Assembly (NCBI RefSeq): GCF_021209385.1
Contig: NZ_JAJOIL010000028.1
Span: 124,001 to 188,000, forward strand
Length of the DNA: 64,000 nucleotides
Source of the DNA: Seleniivibrio sp.
GTDB lineage: Bacteria; Chrysiogenota; Deferribacteres; Deferribacterales; Geovibrionaceae
Reading direction: 5' to 3'
Shown: positions 43,602 to 50,017 of the stretch, piece after piece
Layout: each line of letters begins with the position of its first letter
Numbering within the stretch: position 1 is the stretch's first letter
Made by a program: the position numbers and the translations under genes
Notes under the pieces: generated by a model
Seen by the model: the letters and a program-made list of their open reading frames with translations, nothing else
The model's database searches: none
What the model was told of the DNA's origin: nothing

Positions 43602-44753
43602 TTAACACTTTTTTTCCCACGGGTGAAGGGTGTAGTACTTAGCCAATCCATTCTTACTACCGTTTTCAGGTGGGCATGTTTTCTCTGCAAATCCTATAAA
43701 TATTGCTGATTCAAATGCATGTCCGTACTTATGCTTACTATAATTAGCACCAGCAGGTCGTATACTGTTTGTGTTATCTTTTACATTTGTTAGGGTTACA
43801 GGCTTTCCTAGCCACTCTTTACGCCACCAATCGTATATCTCGGTGTATCTCTGCTCATGTTGAGAACGTTCGTCTGAGGATGGATAACGCTCTTCTGGCA
43901 CGCCATTATCTGTAATCTCCAGCCATGTCGTTTCATGCTGAGCAGAGTAGTTGTGCTTAGCGTGCGTGACTTTCACAAACCTGCCAGCCTTTATAGCTTC
44001 CTTAATCTCGGGTTCGAGAAAATCATTCACTTCACTAGGTTTAACTCTTTCCAGCAGTATAACTGATCTAGCGTTGTCCGTAATAGAAGATGCTCCCCTA
44101 GCAGCATGAAGCTGATTAGAATTGTTTTTAGGCACATGGTGAATAAGTACCACTGAACATCCAGCTTTACTTGCTAACCGTTCATACGCTACCAGTAGTG
44201 CTCCCATCTGAGCGTTACTGTTCTCATCAAGGCTATGTGAACGCACCATTGTATCAATAAACAGACATCTGATGTTGTTTAGCTTGAGATACACTGCCAG
44301 ATCATCAACGATGGATGATATTTCAACTTCTCCATTGAAGTTATTAGCAAAGTGGGTGGGTAATCCATATCTATCAATCAATATGAACTTGTCACTAATC
44401 TCCTGTATGCGTGATTTAACATCATTAGGCATTCTGTTGATCAGATTATACAATCTCTGTCTTATTGGTGGCTGAGGGTCTTCCAGTGACATATAAGCCA
44501 CCTTCTCACCGTTTGTCTCAGCATTCAGTATTTCCAAACCTAGACAAGTGTGTATACCCATCTTCATTGCGAGGTATGATTTACCTACACCTCCATGAGC
44601 AACAAGCATCGTTACTGCTCCTATCGGTGCAAGTGGATTGATAGCAAAATCTACCTTAGGTGGTTCTTCTGTCAGCCATTTTAGCGGGATGTTTATCCCT
44701 GTGAATGTCTCTTTTTCCTGATGGTATTCATATTCTGTAATTATATTATTCAT
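43602..44753 (-). CDS. RepA-like hexameric helicase / AAA_25 ATPase
   Basis: 383 residues from the ATG at 44753, which has GGAG six bases upstream (an ATG two codons earlier abuts the SD). RecA-fold motor: Walker A AHGGVGKSYLAM, then MSLEDPQPPIRQRL, Walker B CLFIDTMVRSHS, and the sensor VVLIHHVPKNN with ARGASSITDNARS. This is the RSF1010 RepA pattern of plasmid and satellite helicases. A C-terminal region with WWRKEWLG may bind DNA or partner proteins. Probably drives replication of the excised element; no primase is fused or adjacent. Confidence 0.85.
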   Translation of the reverse strand: MNNIITEYEYHQEKETFTGINIPLKWLTEEPPKVDFAINPLAPIGAVTMLVAHGGVGKSYLAMKMGIHTCLGLEILNAETNGEKVAYMSLEDPQPPIRQRLYNLINRMPNDVKSRIQEISDKFILIDRYGLPTHFANNFNGEVEISSIVDDLAVYLKLNNIRCLFIDTMVRSHSLDENSNAQMGALLVAYERLASKAGCSVVLIHHVPKNNSNQLHAARGASSITDNARSVILLERVKPSEVNDFLEPEIKEAIKAGRFVKVTHAKHNYSAQHETTWLEITDNGVPEERYPSSDERSQHEQRYTEIYDWWRKEWLGKPVTLTNVKDNTNSIRPAGANYSKHKYGHAFESAIFIGFAEKTCPPENGSKNGLAKYYTLHPWEKKC

Positions 44754-44946
44754 AATCATCTCCGTTATTATTATTGAAAAAATTATATTTTAAGTTATTT
44801 TTAAACATGAGCCTTAATTGACTCATAAGCTTATGAAGGGTAGACGGGTTAGCCACCAAGCATACGCCTATCTGCCCTTTTTTAGTGTCTGAAGCCGGAC
44901 TATTTGACTTCTGACCGCACGTTAAACACTGGTTATTCATAACCAC
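44746..44946 (-). CDS. Small CxxC protein between AlpA and the helicase
   Basis: 66 residues from a GTG at 44946, favoured because GGAGG lies 6 bases upstream (an ATG at 44940 is too far away). N-terminal NNQCLTCGQKS is a possible half zinc finger; the rest is a basic helix followed by an Asn-rich end. Overlaps the alpA stop and the helicase start, so it is translated in the same operon. No family recognised. Confidence 0.55.
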   Translation of the reverse strand: MVMNNQCLTCGQKSNSPASDTKKGQIGVCLVANPSTLHKLMSQLRLMFKNNLKYNFFNNNNGDDYE

Positions 44947-45167
44947 TATTCACCTCCTTTCCTGCTTTCAGATATACGTTCTTCGATGAAGGCTGTTATA
45001 TCAGCCTCCAGCCACCCAATCGCCCTTACGCTAATTTGAATGCTCTTTGGAAATTTACGTTTCTTCATTAGGTCATAGATTGTTGACCTAGCCAGACCAG
45101 TGAGTTTTTCAACTTCAGGTCGTCTGATAATTCGTTGACTGTTCAGGTTCTGAATATCGTTCTTCAT
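44946..45167 (-). CDS. AlpA-family excisionase/transcriptional regulator
   Basis: 73 residues, MerR-like winged helix: IIRRPEVEKLTGLARSTIYDLMKKRKFPKSI, then IGWLEADITAFIEERI. This is the standard AlpA/P4 Vis pattern; relatives control integrase expression and excision. GGAG lies 6-7 bases before the ATG. Two palindromes upstream (45185-45198 and 45266-45284) are candidate operators. Confidence 0.92.
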   Translation of the reverse strand: MKNDIQNLNSQRIIRRPEVEKLTGLARSTIYDLMKKRKFPKSIQISVRAIGWLEADITAFIEERISESRKGGE

Positions 45168-45184
45168 TGCTTGCTCCTTAATTT

Positions 45185-45284
45185 TAGATAAGTATCTATA
45201 TATAACGTTCGTGGATATTAATCAAGGGAAGAATTTTTAAAAAGTATAATATCGACAGTATTTTAGATACTATATTATAGTATC
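45185..45284. promoter_or_regulatory. Twin operator-like palindromes between alpA and the integrase
   Basis: TAGATA-AG-TATCTA (45185-45198) and GATACTAT-ATT-ATAGTATC (45266-45284), each preceded by TTT, share the half-site GATA/TATC. They sit in the 199-base gap that should hold the alpA-operon promoter. Confidence 0.6.
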
Positions 45285-45366
45285 ATTCAGCAGTCATATT
45301 ACATTGTAGTATGTATGGTGTGGTAATTGATGTTTTAGGGGGGATAAAGTTGAGTTCAGTTTAACA

Positions 45367-46557
45367 TTAGGGCTTGTTAAGTTTTAGACCATCCAGATAA
45401 TCTGCCCATTCCTGCATCATAACTGTTCTTTTATCCAGATATTCCGCATGGTTATAAGCACCCTTTACTTTATTTCGCTCAACGTGGGCTAACTGCATTT
45501 CTATTATAGCGCTCTCATAACCTTTTTCGTGCAACAATGTTGAAGCCATTGCTCGGAATCCGTGGGCGGTCATTTCTTCTTTTGTATATCCCATGCGCCT
45601 AAGAGCAGAAAGTATTGTAACATTGCTCATTGGTCTTTCTTTTGACCGAGCATTAGGAAACACATATTTCCATTGTCCTGTTAATGGCTGAATCTCTTTC
45701 AAAATAGAAACCGCCTGCTTAGAAAGCGGTATGATGTGCGGTCTTCTCATCTTCATTTTTTCGGCTGGAATCTTCCACAGTCCTGCATGTAAATCTATTT
45801 CAGACCATTCTGCCTGCCTGAGTTCGCCAGGACGCAACATAACATAAGGAGTCAGCCTCAAGGCACATTTAGTAACAATATCGCCTGTATAGCTGTCTAT
45901 AGCCCTCATAAGCCCGCCTATCTCGTCAGTCTCAGTTATTGTTGCCATATTCTTAGATACTCTTGCTGTCAAAGCTCCTTTGAGGTCATGGCTAATATTC
46001 CTTTCCGCTCTTCCAGTGGCGATAGCGAAAGAATAAACCTCGCCAACAATATTTTTAGTTCTGTGTGCAACATCAATAGAGCCTCTTTCTTCTATTAGTC
46101 TAAGAACAGATAATAACTCCTGAGCTGTTATATTTTTTACTGGTCTATCACCAATATAAGGAAAGATATTTTTCTCTAATGCTCTCCATTTCCTCTGAGC
46201 ATGGCTTTCAATCCATTTTGGTTTGTTGACAGCGTGCCACTCGGTAGCCACATCTTTAAACCTGTTACTCGCTTCACAGTATATATTATATTTCTTAGCC
46301 TTCTTTAACTCATTAGGGTCAATACCTTCCGAAATCAGCTTTCTTGCCTCATCTCGCTTTTCTCTGGCTTCTTTAAGTGATATTTCAGGATAAGAGCCTA
46401 TTACATAGGTTTTCCTTTTATTTGCATAGCGGTAGTCTAGACGAAAGGTTTTACCGCCTGCTTCGGATACATAGATATACATGCTTTTTTCATCTTGAAT
46501 CTTATAGCCTTTGTCTTTTGCTTTAGCAGTTCTTATGGCGGTATCAGTTGTTCCCAT
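45367..46557 (-). CDS. Tyrosine integrase, P4 type
   Basis: 396 residues. N-terminal DUF4102 arm-binding domain (YIYVSEAGGKTFRLDYRY, then YPEISLKEAREKRDEARKLI), SAM-like core-binding domain, and catalytic domain with Arg (LRPGELRQAEW), Lys region, HGFRAMAST (His-x2-Arg) and the nucleophile Tyr in YNHAEYLDKR. All catalytic residues appear intact. Reads away from the tRNA-Met it targets, the standard arrangement for tRNA-site islands. Confidence 0.95.
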   Translation of the reverse strand: MGTTDTAIRTAKAKDKGYKIQDEKSMYIYVSEAGGKTFRLDYRYANKRKTYVIGSYPEISLKEAREKRDEARKLISEGIDPNELKKAKKYNIYCEASNRFKDVATEWHAVNKPKWIESHAQRKWRALEKNIFPYIGDRPVKNITAQELLSVLRLIEERGSIDVAHRTKNIVGEVYSFAIATGRAERNISHDLKGALTARVSKNMATITETDEIGGLMRAIDSYTGDIVTKCALRLTPYVMLRPGELRQAEWSEIDLHAGLWKIPAEKMKMRRPHIIPLSKQAVSILKEIQPLTGQWKYVFPNARSKERPMSNVTILSALRRMGYTKEEMTAHGFRAMASTLLHEKGYESAIIEMQLAHVERNKVKGAYNHAEYLDKRTVMMQEWADYLDGLKLNKP

Positions 46558-46663
46558 GACGGTATAACCTCATCAGAATATTATAAGCAATAACACTATA
46601 ACTGATTGTATAAAAAGATATTTTACTGGTCATGGCGGTATAGCTTATATAATGATTATATCG

Positions 46664-46684
46664 TACCGTCAATCATACCGTCAA
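46664..46684 (+). repeat. Paired integrase-arm-like boxes, tRNA-proximal end
   Basis: TACCGTCAA at 46664-46672 and 46676-46684, 12-base period, identical in sequence and spacing to 40548-40568. Located between the integrase start and the att core. Confidence 0.6.
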
Positions 46685-46752
46685 GAAAAGTTGGCTTTCG
46701 TTGGATTTGTCTGGAACTCTAAAGAGTTGAAACCCCCTCCAAATGGGCATTA

Positions 46753-46784
46753 AAAAAGGCTTCGCAGATTTCTCTGGAAGCCCT
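46753..46784 (-). terminator. Terminator downstream of tRNA-Met, brought by the island
   Basis: On the minus strand GGCTTC...GAAGCC followed by TTTTTT. It lies just inside the island and ends tRNA transcription before the integrase gene. Confidence 0.7.
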
Positions 46785-46798
46785 TAAACTTCGATTAA

Positions 46799-46816
46799 AT
46801 GGCGGTGCAGGGAATT
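46799..46816. repeat. attachment repeat at the tRNA 3' end
   Basis: ATGGCGGTGCAGGGAATT, the tRNA-Met T-arm and acceptor 3' side; exact copy at 40472-40489. Integration therefore regenerated an intact tRNA. Confidence 0.88.
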
Positions 46817-46873
46817 GAACCCCGGACACTGCGGATATGAGCCGCATGCTCTAACCATCTGAGCTACACCGCC
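46800..46873 (-). tRNA. tRNA-Met (CAT), probably elongator
   Basis: 74-base cloverleaf: acceptor GGCGGTG/CACCGCC, D arm AGCTCAGATGGTTAGAGC, anticodon stem TGCGG/CCGCA around loop CTCATAT (CAT), T arm CGGGGTTCAATTCCCTG (one mismatch). CCA is not encoded. G1-C72 pairs normally, unlike the initiator at 714. A lysidine-type tRNA-Ile2 also has CAT, but the overall sequence looks like elongator Met. Confidence 0.88.
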
Positions 46874-46925: not shown

Positions 46926-48044
46926 TTAATTCGCAAGAACAAAGTCTTTATTCTTTATTTCAACAATGACGAAAGAATCCTTTGAAAGCCCTGTGTGGTC
47001 GCCGGGCGTCATATTGAATTCACCAGCTATGCCGATCATCTTTTTAATTTTTTCAAGCTCTCCGGCAAGTTTATCGCCGCCTGTGTGCGCTTTGCTGTAA
47101 GCAGTTTTGAACAGCATGAAAGCGTCATATGCGTGTCCGCCGAAAGCAGATACCGGTGATTTGAAATTGCCTTCAAAATCGTTCTTATATTTCACGAGCG
47201 TCTTTTTGAATTTATCGCTGTCGGGAAGCTGGTCAGCAACAACGATTCTGCCAGCTGTGAGTTTTATGCCGTTTGCCGCATCTCCCGCAAGCTCAATAAA
47301 CTTCATGGACGCAACGCCCTGTGTCATATAAAGATCGCCCATGCCGAGCTGCTGGGCATTTCTGGCGATGATGGCAGGAGCCGCACCAGCCGCCCAACAG
47401 ATGACGGCATCATACTTCTTCCCTTTGATGTTAGAAAGCTGGGAGGTCATATCCTTGTCTTTGTCGCGGAATTTCTCGTCCGCAACAATGTTCATTCCGT
47501 ATTTCTTTGCGATATCAAGAACCGCGTCTCTGCCTGTTGAGCCGTAACCGCTCTGTTCAGTGATAAGCGCTATGTTCTTTTTCTTTTTAGACGCAAGGTA
47601 TTCCAGCAGTTTTTCAGCAACCTGAGTGTCTGACTGGGGAGTTTTATATACATATTTGTTAACCGGAGTAACGATATCAAGGCTGGCAGCGCATGATATC
47701 AGCGGGAGTTTATATCTTGCCGCAAGATTTTTGATAGCCAGAGCAGAGCCTGTTCTGGACGGTCCCAAAACAGCGACAACCTTGTCGACAGTTGCAAGTC
47801 TTTTGAAAGAGTTTATGGTGATGTTCTCGTCACCCTGCGTATCATAGATAAAAAGTTTTATCTTTTCGCCGTTGATTCCGCCCTGTTTGTTCACTTCTTC
47901 AACAAGCATCTCAAGGGTCTGCTTTTCAGGCATCCCGAGGAAGCTTGTCGGTCCTGTAACGGAAAAAAGACCGCCAAGCCTTATCTCCGCGTGCGCCACG
48001 GCACAGATGAGCAGCGCGAGCATAATAAAAGATATCTTTCTCAT
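46926..48044 (-). CDS. ABC transporter periplasmic binding protein, branched-chain amino-acid type
   Basis: 372 residues from the ATG at 48044 (AAGGAG 8 bases upstream; a GTG at 48053 is less likely). Signal peptide to about residue 19 (AVAHA), then IRLGGLFSVTGPTSFLG, the Leu/Ile/Val-binding-protein (Peripla_BP_6) start, ending in PVSAFGGHAYDAF. No transporter membrane or ATPase genes adjoin it, so it works with distant partners or is an orphan receptor. The actual ligand may be an amino acid, an aromatic acid or another small organic acid. Confidence 0.9.
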   Translation of the reverse strand: MRKISFIMLALLICAVAHAEIRLGGLFSVTGPTSFLGMPEKQTLEMLVEEVNKQGGINGEKIKLFIYDTQGDENITINSFKRLATVDKVVAVLGPSRTGSALAIKNLAARYKLPLISCAASLDIVTPVNKYVYKTPQSDTQVAEKLLEYLASKKKKNIALITEQSGYGSTGRDAVLDIAKKYGMNIVADEKFRDKDKDMTSQLSNIKGKKYDAVICWAAGAAPAIIARNAQQLGMGDLYMTQGVASMKFIELAGDAANGIKLTAGRIVVADQLPDSDKFKKTLVKYKNDFEGNFKSPVSAFGGHAYDAFMLFKTAYSKAHTGGDKLAGELEKIKKMIGIAGEFNMTPGDHTGLSKDSFVIVEIKNKDFVLAN

Positions 48045-48171
48045 TAATCTCACTCCTTGGAAAACGTCGGTCGTTGATTATATCAGATGTCATGATAATT
48101 TCAAATGTTTTGTCAGACTAATTATAGGCTTTATTGGTAACAAAATAGTTATAATTACAACTAAAATTATG

Positions 48172-48198
48172 TAAAGTTTGTGATTAAAATGTCGATAT
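48172..48198 (+). promoter_or_regulatory. Flagellar sigma-28 (FliA) promoter
   Basis: TAAAGTTT (48172-48179), exactly 11 bases, then GTCGATAT (48191-48198). The consensus is TAAAGTTT-N11-GCCGATAA: 8/8 in the -35 and 6/8 in the -10. The promoter ends 19 bases before the YjfB-like ATG. Confidence 0.78.
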
Positions 48199-48217
48199 AA
48201 AAACACAGGAGATTTAT

Positions 48218-48424
48218 ATGGACCTGTCATCAATAGCTGCAGCCGCCAGCGATATGAAAGCGGCCGAAACACAATATGCTGCCAACATAAAAGTCATGAA
48301 AATGGCTATGGATACTCAGAAAGCAGGACTTTCCGTTCTGGCTCCTCTTGATTCCGCAGCAGCAGGTGTCAGCCGTGCCGCAGACGGTACTGGCAAAGGC
48401 ACGCTTCTCGACATTATGGCGTAA
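48218..48424 (+). CDS. YjfB-like putative motility protein
   Basis: 68 residues, family PF14070-like: MDLSSIAAAASDMKAAETQY, then KVMKMAMDTQKAG and a flexible Ala/Gly-rich second half ending TLLDIMA. Members are small, predicted helical and associated with flagellar regulons, with no known biochemical role. AGGAG sits 6 bases before the ATG. First gene behind the sigma-28 promoter. Its last six residues match the ends of the next two proteins. Confidence 0.8.
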   Translation: MDLSSIAAAASDMKAAETQYAANIKVMKMAMDTQKAGLSVLAPLDSAAAGVSRAADGTGKGTLLDIMA

Positions 48425-48520
48425 AAGTGACATCTCCTAATGATATATACAGAGATCAATTACTCGCTAAACATATTGTTTATATAAATCATTACGATAT
48501 GCTGATTAGCGGAGGACTTA

Positions 48521-48748
48521 ATGCGCATAACATCAGCCTCAACCCTTAACAATCCTGTTATAAACCAGGCTTCAAATACCAGAACCGCCTCTAAAACGCA
48601 ATCCGATGGAGGATTCTTTCAGGCTGTCGAAGATTTTTTTCAACCCATATGGCCTTTTCCGCCTGAAAAATCAGAAGAATCCGAATCAGCACTGGAGTCT
48701 TTTACAGAGGATGCAATAAAGACAGCATCCATAAATATTCTTGCATAG
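48521..48748 (+). CDS. Small tail-tagged protein A, unknown
   Basis: 75 residues, no signal peptide. N-terminus MRITSASTLNNPVINQ, a Ser/Thr/Asn-rich disordered stretch, an aromatic/Pro patch (GGFFQAVEDFFQPIWPFPP), an acidic helix and the ending ASINILA. GGAGG lies 6 bases upstream of the ATG. It shares both the N-terminal M-x-IT-x-A-x-S pattern and the C-terminal tail with the following protein. No homologue recognised. Confidence 0.65.
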   Translation: MRITSASTLNNPVINQASNTRTASKTQSDGGFFQAVEDFFQPIWPFPPEKSEESESALESFTEDAIKTASINILA

Positions 48749-48763
48749 TTTTTGAGGGAAGAA

Positions 48764-49036
48764 ATGTCAATAACACCTGCACGCAGCAGTCTCACAAGTT
48801 CTGCACAACAGATAAAAAGTGACGTAAAATCTGCACAAAGACAGATTAAGAATGATGTTAAGAATGCAGTCTCGGACGTGAAAAGTAATGTCAAAAGCGC
48901 CGTTTCCGATGTTAAAAGCAACATAAAAGCTGCAAAAACAGAAATCAAAGACAACGCCGAGGACGCTGTTGAAGACGTTAAGAGTACAACTCTCGGAGAC
49001 ATAGCAAAGGCGCTAGGACTGGATATATTTGCCTGA
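48764..49036 (+). CDS. Small tail-tagged protein B with 11-residue amphipathic repeats
   Basis: 90 residues from the ATG at 48764 (GAGGG 4-5 bases upstream; an in-frame TTG at 48752 is unlikely). N-terminus MSITPARSSLTSSAQQ, then repeated units of the type I/V-KSDVKSA, IKNDVKNAV, SDVKSNVKSAV and SDVKSNIKAA, a long Lys/Asp amphipathic helix like apolipoprotein or LEA repeats, ending ALGLDIFA. Starts 15 bases after protein A. No signal peptide. Ends directly against the converging DHOD-like gene. Confidence 0.7.
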   Translation: MSITPARSSLTSSAQQIKSDVKSAQRQIKNDVKNAVSDVKSNVKSAVSDVKSNIKAAKTEIKDNAEDAVEDVKSTTLGDIAKALGLDIFA

Positions 49037-50017
49037 TTACCTGATGATGCTTCCGTCGGCTATTTTTATGTACTGAACACGCTCAAGAGTCTGGAACTGT
49101 CTGATCTTTTTGCGCAGAACAAGCCCCACAGCGTCCTCAAGGTTCATCTCATGCCTGTCAAGCCACTCTGAAAGCCCCTGATTCAGCTCAGTTACGGCAG
49201 AAAATCCTTTTTTATAGAGCATAGATGCGACCTGAACAGTTGATGCGCCGGCAAGAACGTACTGTGTCAGAACGTCGGCGTTATGAACGCCAGTTGAAGC
49301 GGAAATATCTATAGAAGATTCTTTAGCAACAGCCGCAACCCAGCGTATAACATTATATGCTTCACTCTCCTGCGAAAAATAATGCACGGGTTCAAGCTCC
49401 AGCGTATCGGTATTTATCTTCATCTGATAGTATCTGTTAAAAAGCGTCACAGCTTTTGCGCCCGCGCTATGCAGTCTGCGCACCATATAGGGTACTGCGG
49501 TGACATTCTGCCCTATCTTCACGGAAACGGGTATGCTGACTGTCTCTTTGACCTCATGAACCACTTCAAAGTATCTGGATTCCACTTCCTGCGAAGAGAT
49601 TCCGGCGTCAAAAGGCATAAAGGATATATTCAGTTCGATGCCGTGCGCTCCGGCTTCCTCGATGGATTTCGCATATTCCGTCCACCATTTCCCGCCTTCG
49701 CAGTTCACGCTTGCGATAACGGGTACTGAGACCGCTTTAACAGCTTTTCGCACAAGTTCGAGGTATTCGCCGGCACCGTAAACCATAGCGGCGTCAGCGT
49801 TCATATAATCGTATGCCTCACTGTGGAAGGATGTATCTATATCAAGCCCGCTGTCCTGACGGATCTCCTCTTCAAAGAGCGATTTGAGGATAACTGCGCC
49901 TGCGCCTGCCTCTTCCGCCTTTTTCAGATTATCGACGTCCTTGGTCAGCGTGCTGCTTGCTGTTATAACTGGGCTTTTCAGTTTCATTCCCATATAGGTT
50001 GTGCTGATGTCGGGCAT
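49037..50017 (-). CDS. Dihydroorotate dehydrogenase-like flavoprotein
   Basis: 326 residues, FMN TIM barrel. SPVITASSTLTKDVDNL at the start, HGIELNIS, SVKIGQN (Lys), TLFNRYYQ, and the phosphate-binding ASTGVHNADV and GASTVQVASMLY. Belongs to the DHOD-like group that often lacks the catalytic base of true PyrD and is found beside central redox genes; pyrimidine synthesis is not shown. Nine bases downstream of ftsK, same strand. Confidence 0.85.
   Translation of the reverse strand: MPDISTTYMGMKLKSPVITASSTLTKDVDNLKKAEEAGAGAVILKSLFEEEIRQDSGLDIDTSFHSEAYDYMNADAAMVYGAGEYLELVRKAVKAVSVPVIASVNCEGGKWWTEYAKSIEEAGAHGIELNISFMPFDAGISSQEVESRYFEVVHEVKETVSIPVSVKIGQNVTAVPYMVRRLHSAGAKAVTLFNRYYQMKINTDTLELEPVHYFSQESEAYNVIRWVAAVAKESSIDISASTGVHNADVLTQYVLAGASTVQVASMLYKKGFSAVTELNQGLSEWLDRHEMNLEDAVGLVLRKKIRQFQTLERVQYIKIADGSIIR

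What the first reader, a model, noticed from the sequence alone, without database searches (positions are those of the whole stretch)
48172..49036. Sigma-28-driven cassette of three tiny proteins sharing one C-terminal tail
A near-consensus FliA promoter (TAAAGTTT, 11-base spacer, GTCGATAT) precedes three consecutive genes of 68, 75 and 90 residues. Their bodies are unrelated, but all three end alike: TLLDIMA, ASINILA, GLDIFA, i.e. [LI]-[DN]-I-[MLF]-A at the extreme C-terminus. The second and third also share the start M-x-IT-x-A-x-S. Conserved ends around a variable, signal-peptide-free middle is how flagellar axial and export substrates look. I infer an undescribed set of small flagellar-regulon proteins, possibly exported by the flagellar type III system or docked on one common partner by the tail.
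Basis: partly seen in the sequence, partly recalled or inferred. Interest (0 to 1): 0.8.

Follow-up and report, generated by a model that had tools for sequence, protein, structure and literature searches.

The report
Small flagellar-regulon proteins sharing a tail
Behind a promoter used for late flagellar genes lie three tiny genes, one a known but unexplained motility protein (YjfB) and two new ones, whose proteins all end in the same five-residue tail; the tail recurs on other unrelated small proteins of this bacterial group, which suggests a shared docking or sorting signal.

Summary
The three genes are where stated, and the FliA (sigma-28) site at 48172-48198 is the only full match to its pattern in the 2.9-Mb genome. 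Comparable sites, all with an 11-base spacer, lie upstream of 15 YjfB-family orthologs; 14 beat shuffled sequence. ORF1 is not undescribed: it is a Pfam YjfB_motility protein (PF14070), and the tail is that family's C-terminus. ORF2 and ORF3 match no family and were found only here and in a Seleniivibrio woodruffii MAG, in the same order, with coding-type substitution and conserved tails. A tail profile built only from YjfB proteins of other genera scores ORF2 and ORF3 as unlikely chance, and also picks out EF-hand-like small proteins of this genus that start M-S-[IV]-S. The tail proteins contain no cysteine (0 of 2720 residues; window genes 1.4%), like this genus's flagellins. Best explanation: a sigma-28-controlled set of small proteins carrying one YjfB-type C-terminal docking tail, probably substrates of the flagellar export machine. 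Docking, partner and export are inferred, not shown.

The parts
48172..48198 (+). FliA (sigma-28) promoter TAAAGTTT-N11-GTCGATAT, 19 bases before ORF1
   Evidence: only full match to the pattern in the genome; 14 of 16 consensus positions, 0 of 500 shuffles; comparable site upstream of 15 orthologs
48218..48424 (+). ORF1, YjfB_motility family protein, 68 aa; tail LDIMA at 48407-48421
   Evidence: PF14070 E 3.9e-7, 30.5 bits over cut-off 27; orthologs in all 12 genomes of the family
48474..48500 (+). possible second FliA-like site TATTGTTT-N11-TACGATAT, 20 bases before ORF2
   Evidence: 11 of 16, 31 of 500 shuffles; site at the same distance in G002, TAACGTTA-N11-TCCGATAT, 12 of 16, 5 of 500; weak
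48521..48748 (+). ORF2, 75 aa, no known family; tail INILA at 48731-48745
   Evidence: 88% identical ortholog in G002 only; 23 of 33 base differences at third codon positions
48764..49036 (+). ORF3, 90 aa, K/D-rich helical protein, no known family; tail LDIFA at 49019-49033
   Evidence: 68% identical ortholog in G002 only; 38 of 67 base differences at third codon positions
49041..49059 (+). terminator-like hairpin after ORF3
   Evidence: consensus scan, 2 sites found against 1.1 in shuffles; weak

Best explanation
This is a late flagellar (sigma-28/FliA) locus. Its first gene encodes the YjfB-family motility protein; the next two encode lineage-specific small proteins that carry the YjfB-type C-terminal tail, hydrophobic-[DN]-hydrophobic-x-A-COOH. 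Most likely the tail is a short docking signal read by one common flagellar partner, so that unrelated bodies (YjfB helix, K/D-rich helix, acidic linker, EF-hand) are handled by the same machinery when sigma-28 is active, most probably as substrates of the flagellar type III export apparatus. Shown: that the genes are real, the conserved FliA site before ORF1, the family of ORF1, non-random sharing of the tail. Inferred: docking, the identity of the partner, export.
For: PF14070 match. FliA site with an 11-base spacer in 15 orthologs, 14 of them reached by at most 6 of 500 shuffles. Published neighbourhood of YjfB with sigma-28, FapA and FlgV (PMC11607428). A tail profile from YjfB proteins outside the genus gives p = 2.7e-4 for ORF3, 1.8e-3 for ORF2, 4.7e-5 and 2.3e-4 for the two EF-hand-like proteins of this genome; among 364 background C-termini of longer ORFs the top scorers are those same EF-hand-like proteins. 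Tails conserved in G002. No cysteine in 35 tail proteins, 2720 residues, against 1.37% in window genes, matching flagellin and FlgL pieces of the genus with 2 in about 6600 residues. FlgL of this genome starts MRITTN, ORF2 starts MRITSA.
Against: No direct evidence of export, of a partner or of transcription. YjfB lacks the MxI[ST] start of the others. ORF2's tail taken alone is only moderately unusual. FliA sites of the EF-hand-like genes are weak or odd in spacing, except in G007. Low cysteine can also reflect Ala/Ser/Lys-rich composition and shared ancestry.
Confidence: 0.5

Rival explanations
1. The tail docks these proteins on a cytoplasmic flagellar or polar partner, such as a PDZ-like domain that reads C-termini or the export gate, and none is exported. 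They act as assembly or number regulators.
For: C-terminus [IVLT]-x-[AV]-COOH resembles C-terminal peptide ligands in general (own knowledge); YjfB is neighbour to FlgV, a basal-body protein that modulates filament assembly (PMC11607428).
Against: Absence of cysteine and EF-hand loops fit an extracytoplasmic place better.
Confidence: 0.27
2. The tail is a degradation signal (ClpXP or C-terminal processing protease) that gives short-lived flagellar proteins quick turnover.
For: The hydrophobic end with a final alanine resembles LAA-type degrons (own knowledge).
Against: A conserved D or N at position -4 is not part of that degron type; the tail is kept across phyla in YjfB.
Confidence: 0.08
3. 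The shared tail of ORF2 and ORF3 is coincidence; only YjfB is a flagellar-regulon gene.
For: The motif is short; ORF2's tail alone has p 0.0018; ORF2 and ORF3 are confined to two genomes.
Against: Three tails in a row, kept in a second genome, and the same tail on unrelated EF-hand-like proteins.
Confidence: 0.12

Closest known systems
YjfB_motility (Pfam PF14070; Bacillus subtilis YjfB)
   Same: ORF1 is a member: profile match over cut-off, sigma-28-type promoter, small size, tail [ILVF]-D-x-x-A
   Different: ORF2 and ORF3 share only the tail and have unrelated bodies
Campylobacter jejuni Feds (flagellar coexpressed determinants) and FlaC
   Same: small non-structural proteins controlled with late flagellar genes; FlaC is secreted through the flagellum (PMC8306008)
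   Different: no homology tested; FlaC resembles flagellin ends, which these do not; analogy only
Flagellar axial proteins (flagellin, FlgL)
   Same: conserved ends around a variable middle, no cysteine; MRIT start in FlgL and ORF2
   Different: far smaller, a different C-terminus, no profile match to flagellin families
Bacterial EF-hand proteins
   Same: the short and long EF-hand-like tail proteins have one EF-hand loop
   Different: below Pfam cut-offs and carrying a YjfB-type tail; not part of this window

Membership tests
YjfB_motility PF14070 (ORF1) | profile match above the curated cut-off | tested here: met
   30.5 bits against 27
YjfB_motility PF14070 (ORF1) | expression under sigma-28/sigma-D | tested here: inconclusive
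   conserved FliA-type site by sequence; no transcript data
YjfB_motility PF14070 (ORF2, ORF3) | profile match | tested here: not met
   no PF14070 match for either
Flagellar type III export substrates | export dependent on FlhA/FliI | not testable with these tools
   needs an export assay
Flagellar type III export substrates | compositional likeness to axial proteins (no cysteine) | tested here: met
   0 of 2720 residues; flagellin and FlgL pieces 2 of about 6600; suggestive only
Campylobacter Feds | sequence homology to FedA-D | not tested
   Fed sequences were not fetched; named as an analogy

The most novel reading that the evidence does not exclude
The C-terminal pentapeptide of YjfB is a portable address that docks or sends unrelated sigma-28-controlled small proteins to the flagellar export machine, a substrate or client class not described before.
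Probability: 0.3. Interest if true: 0.75.

Novelty: new variant of a known kind. Interest (0 to 1): 0.52.

Why it matters
YjfB is found beside flagellar genes in many bacteria, yet its function is unknown. Reuse of its extreme C-terminus on unrelated sigma-28-type small proteins points to the tail as the working part and gives a direct bait for finding its partner. If the tail is an export or docking address, it would define a new class of flagellar substrates or clients.

Tried and rejected
Known small flagellar families for ORF2 and ORF3: no profile match. Apolipoprotein, SF-assemblin and Ag473 hits to ORF3: far below cut-offs, helical K/D composition. ORF2 and ORF3 as widespread genes: no credible match outside G002 in 60 genomes. 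A solved structure for the YjfB profile: none credible. AlphaFold model of ORF1: one long helix and a short tail helix, mean pLDDT 64, too weak for a fold search. An EF-hand paralog next to the long EF-hand gene ends YNGYA or YNAYA and does not score as carrying the tail. The relaxed pattern AAAG-N14-GNCGATA gives more control than true hits in G000, so no genome-wide promoter claim rests on it. Papers on cysteine depletion in flagellar substrates: nothing citable found. A paper on B. subtilis sigma-D naming yjfB: not found in the library.

Full report
Where it is. The window lies in a 2.9-Mb, 42-contig genome (G000). The three genes sit between a periplasmic-binding-protein gene (46926-48053, minus) and a convergent dihydroorotate-dehydrogenase-like gene (49037-50017, minus).

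Observation. The promoter TAAAGTTT-N11-GTCGATAT is the only full match to the degenerate FliA pattern in this genome; G002 has TAAAGTTT-N11-GCCGATAT at the orthologous place.

ORF1 is YjfB. ORF1 matches Pfam PF14070 YjfB_motility above its curated cut-off. Matches to the family were found in all 12 genomes of the taxonomic family searched and thinly beyond; of 14 named control genomes only Bacillus subtilis has one. Published neighbourhood work places YjfB, 'an uncharacterized small protein', beside sigma-28, FapA and FlgV (PMC11607428).

The promoter is conserved. Scoring DNA upstream of the orthologs against TAAAGTTT-N11-GCCGATAA found a best site with an 11-base spacer in 15 orthologs from several genera, 18-26 bases before the start except in G005 (41). 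Fourteen score 12 to 15 of 16 and are reached by at most 6 of 500 shuffles; the G011 site (10 of 16) is no better than chance. In the two tested genomes of another family of the order (G012, G019) there is no such site and yjfB follows directly behind another gene. A matching site also lies roughly 250 bases upstream of a flagellin gene of this genome on contig C10.

ORF2 and ORF3 are real but narrow. Only G002 of 60 genomes has both, in the same order. Between the two genomes 23 of 33 base differences in ORF2 and 38 of 67 in ORF3 fall at third codon positions, and the tails are kept: INILA in both, LDIFA against LDLFA. In G001, G003 and G004 YjfB is followed directly by the convergent gene, so ORF2 and ORF3 were gained or lost within the genus. 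ORF2 has a weak FliA-like site 20 bases before its start in both genomes.

The tail. YjfB proteins outside the genus end [ILVF]-D-[ILVFA]-x-[AVG]. A profile of those tails alone gives ORF3 p = 2.7e-4 and ORF2 p = 1.8e-3 against random peptides of genome composition. The DNA pattern for tail plus stop has 38 hits in 13 genomes, against 28 for the reversed control. Of the hits read out, nearly all lie in frames without a start or too short to be genes. The well-supported genes are ORF1-3, two genes of the G002 locus, the G003 YjfB and one EF-hand-like protein; three open frames of 52-65 codons are of uncertain status, and four hits were not read. Following the tail led to a short group (101-108 aa, ends VDIIA, IDIFA, IDIFV) and a long group (134-145 aa, ends IDTYA, VDMYA, more loosely VNTYA and VNATA) of EF-hand-like proteins that start M-[SN]-[IV]-S. 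Their EF-hand loop is recognisable but below Pfam cut-offs. The long group has a GGCGATAT element conserved in three genomes, and in G007 a good FliA site; sites of the short group are weak.

How it most likely works. The bodies differ while the end is kept, so the end is probably what a common partner reads. The 35 proteins counted, 2720 residues, contain no cysteine, against 1.37% in window genes; flagellin and FlgL pieces of the genus hold two in about 6600 residues. EF-hand loops on proteins without an evident signal peptide also fit an extracytoplasmic place (inference). Flagellar type III export is therefore the likeliest route, but this step is inferred. The rivals are docking without export, a degron, and chance for ORF2 and ORF3.

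Limits. The proteins counted for cysteine are related, so they are not independent trials. The tail profile was built on 15 distinct tails. Nothing here shows a transcript, a partner or export.

Noticed in passing
43602-46873: Probable integrated mobile element: tyrosine integrase (45367-46557), AlpA-type regulator (44946-45167) and an AAA_25 ATPase (43602-44759), with the integrase next to a tRNA-Met gene at 46800-46873.
   Followed up: partly
L123:1488 and L121:1473 on the minus strand (G012, G019): In another family of the order yjfB lies directly behind a gene for a roughly 110-residue protein ending DPNKVLRFYPFE; the G012 copy matches no Pfam family.
   Followed up: partly
L157:1411-1812 (G000 contig C5), next to L153:1501-1911: A second EF-hand-like gene lies just upstream of the long EF-hand tail gene, also in G002 and G003; it starts M-I-[VI]-T-P-A-N-S and ends YNGYA, YNAYA or YNTYG, not the YjfB tail.
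   Followed up: partly
G000 contig C10:929-953: A FliA-type site TAAAGTTATCAATATTTCTGCCGATA lies roughly 250 bases upstream of a flagellin start, implying a long untranslated leader if used.
   Followed up: no
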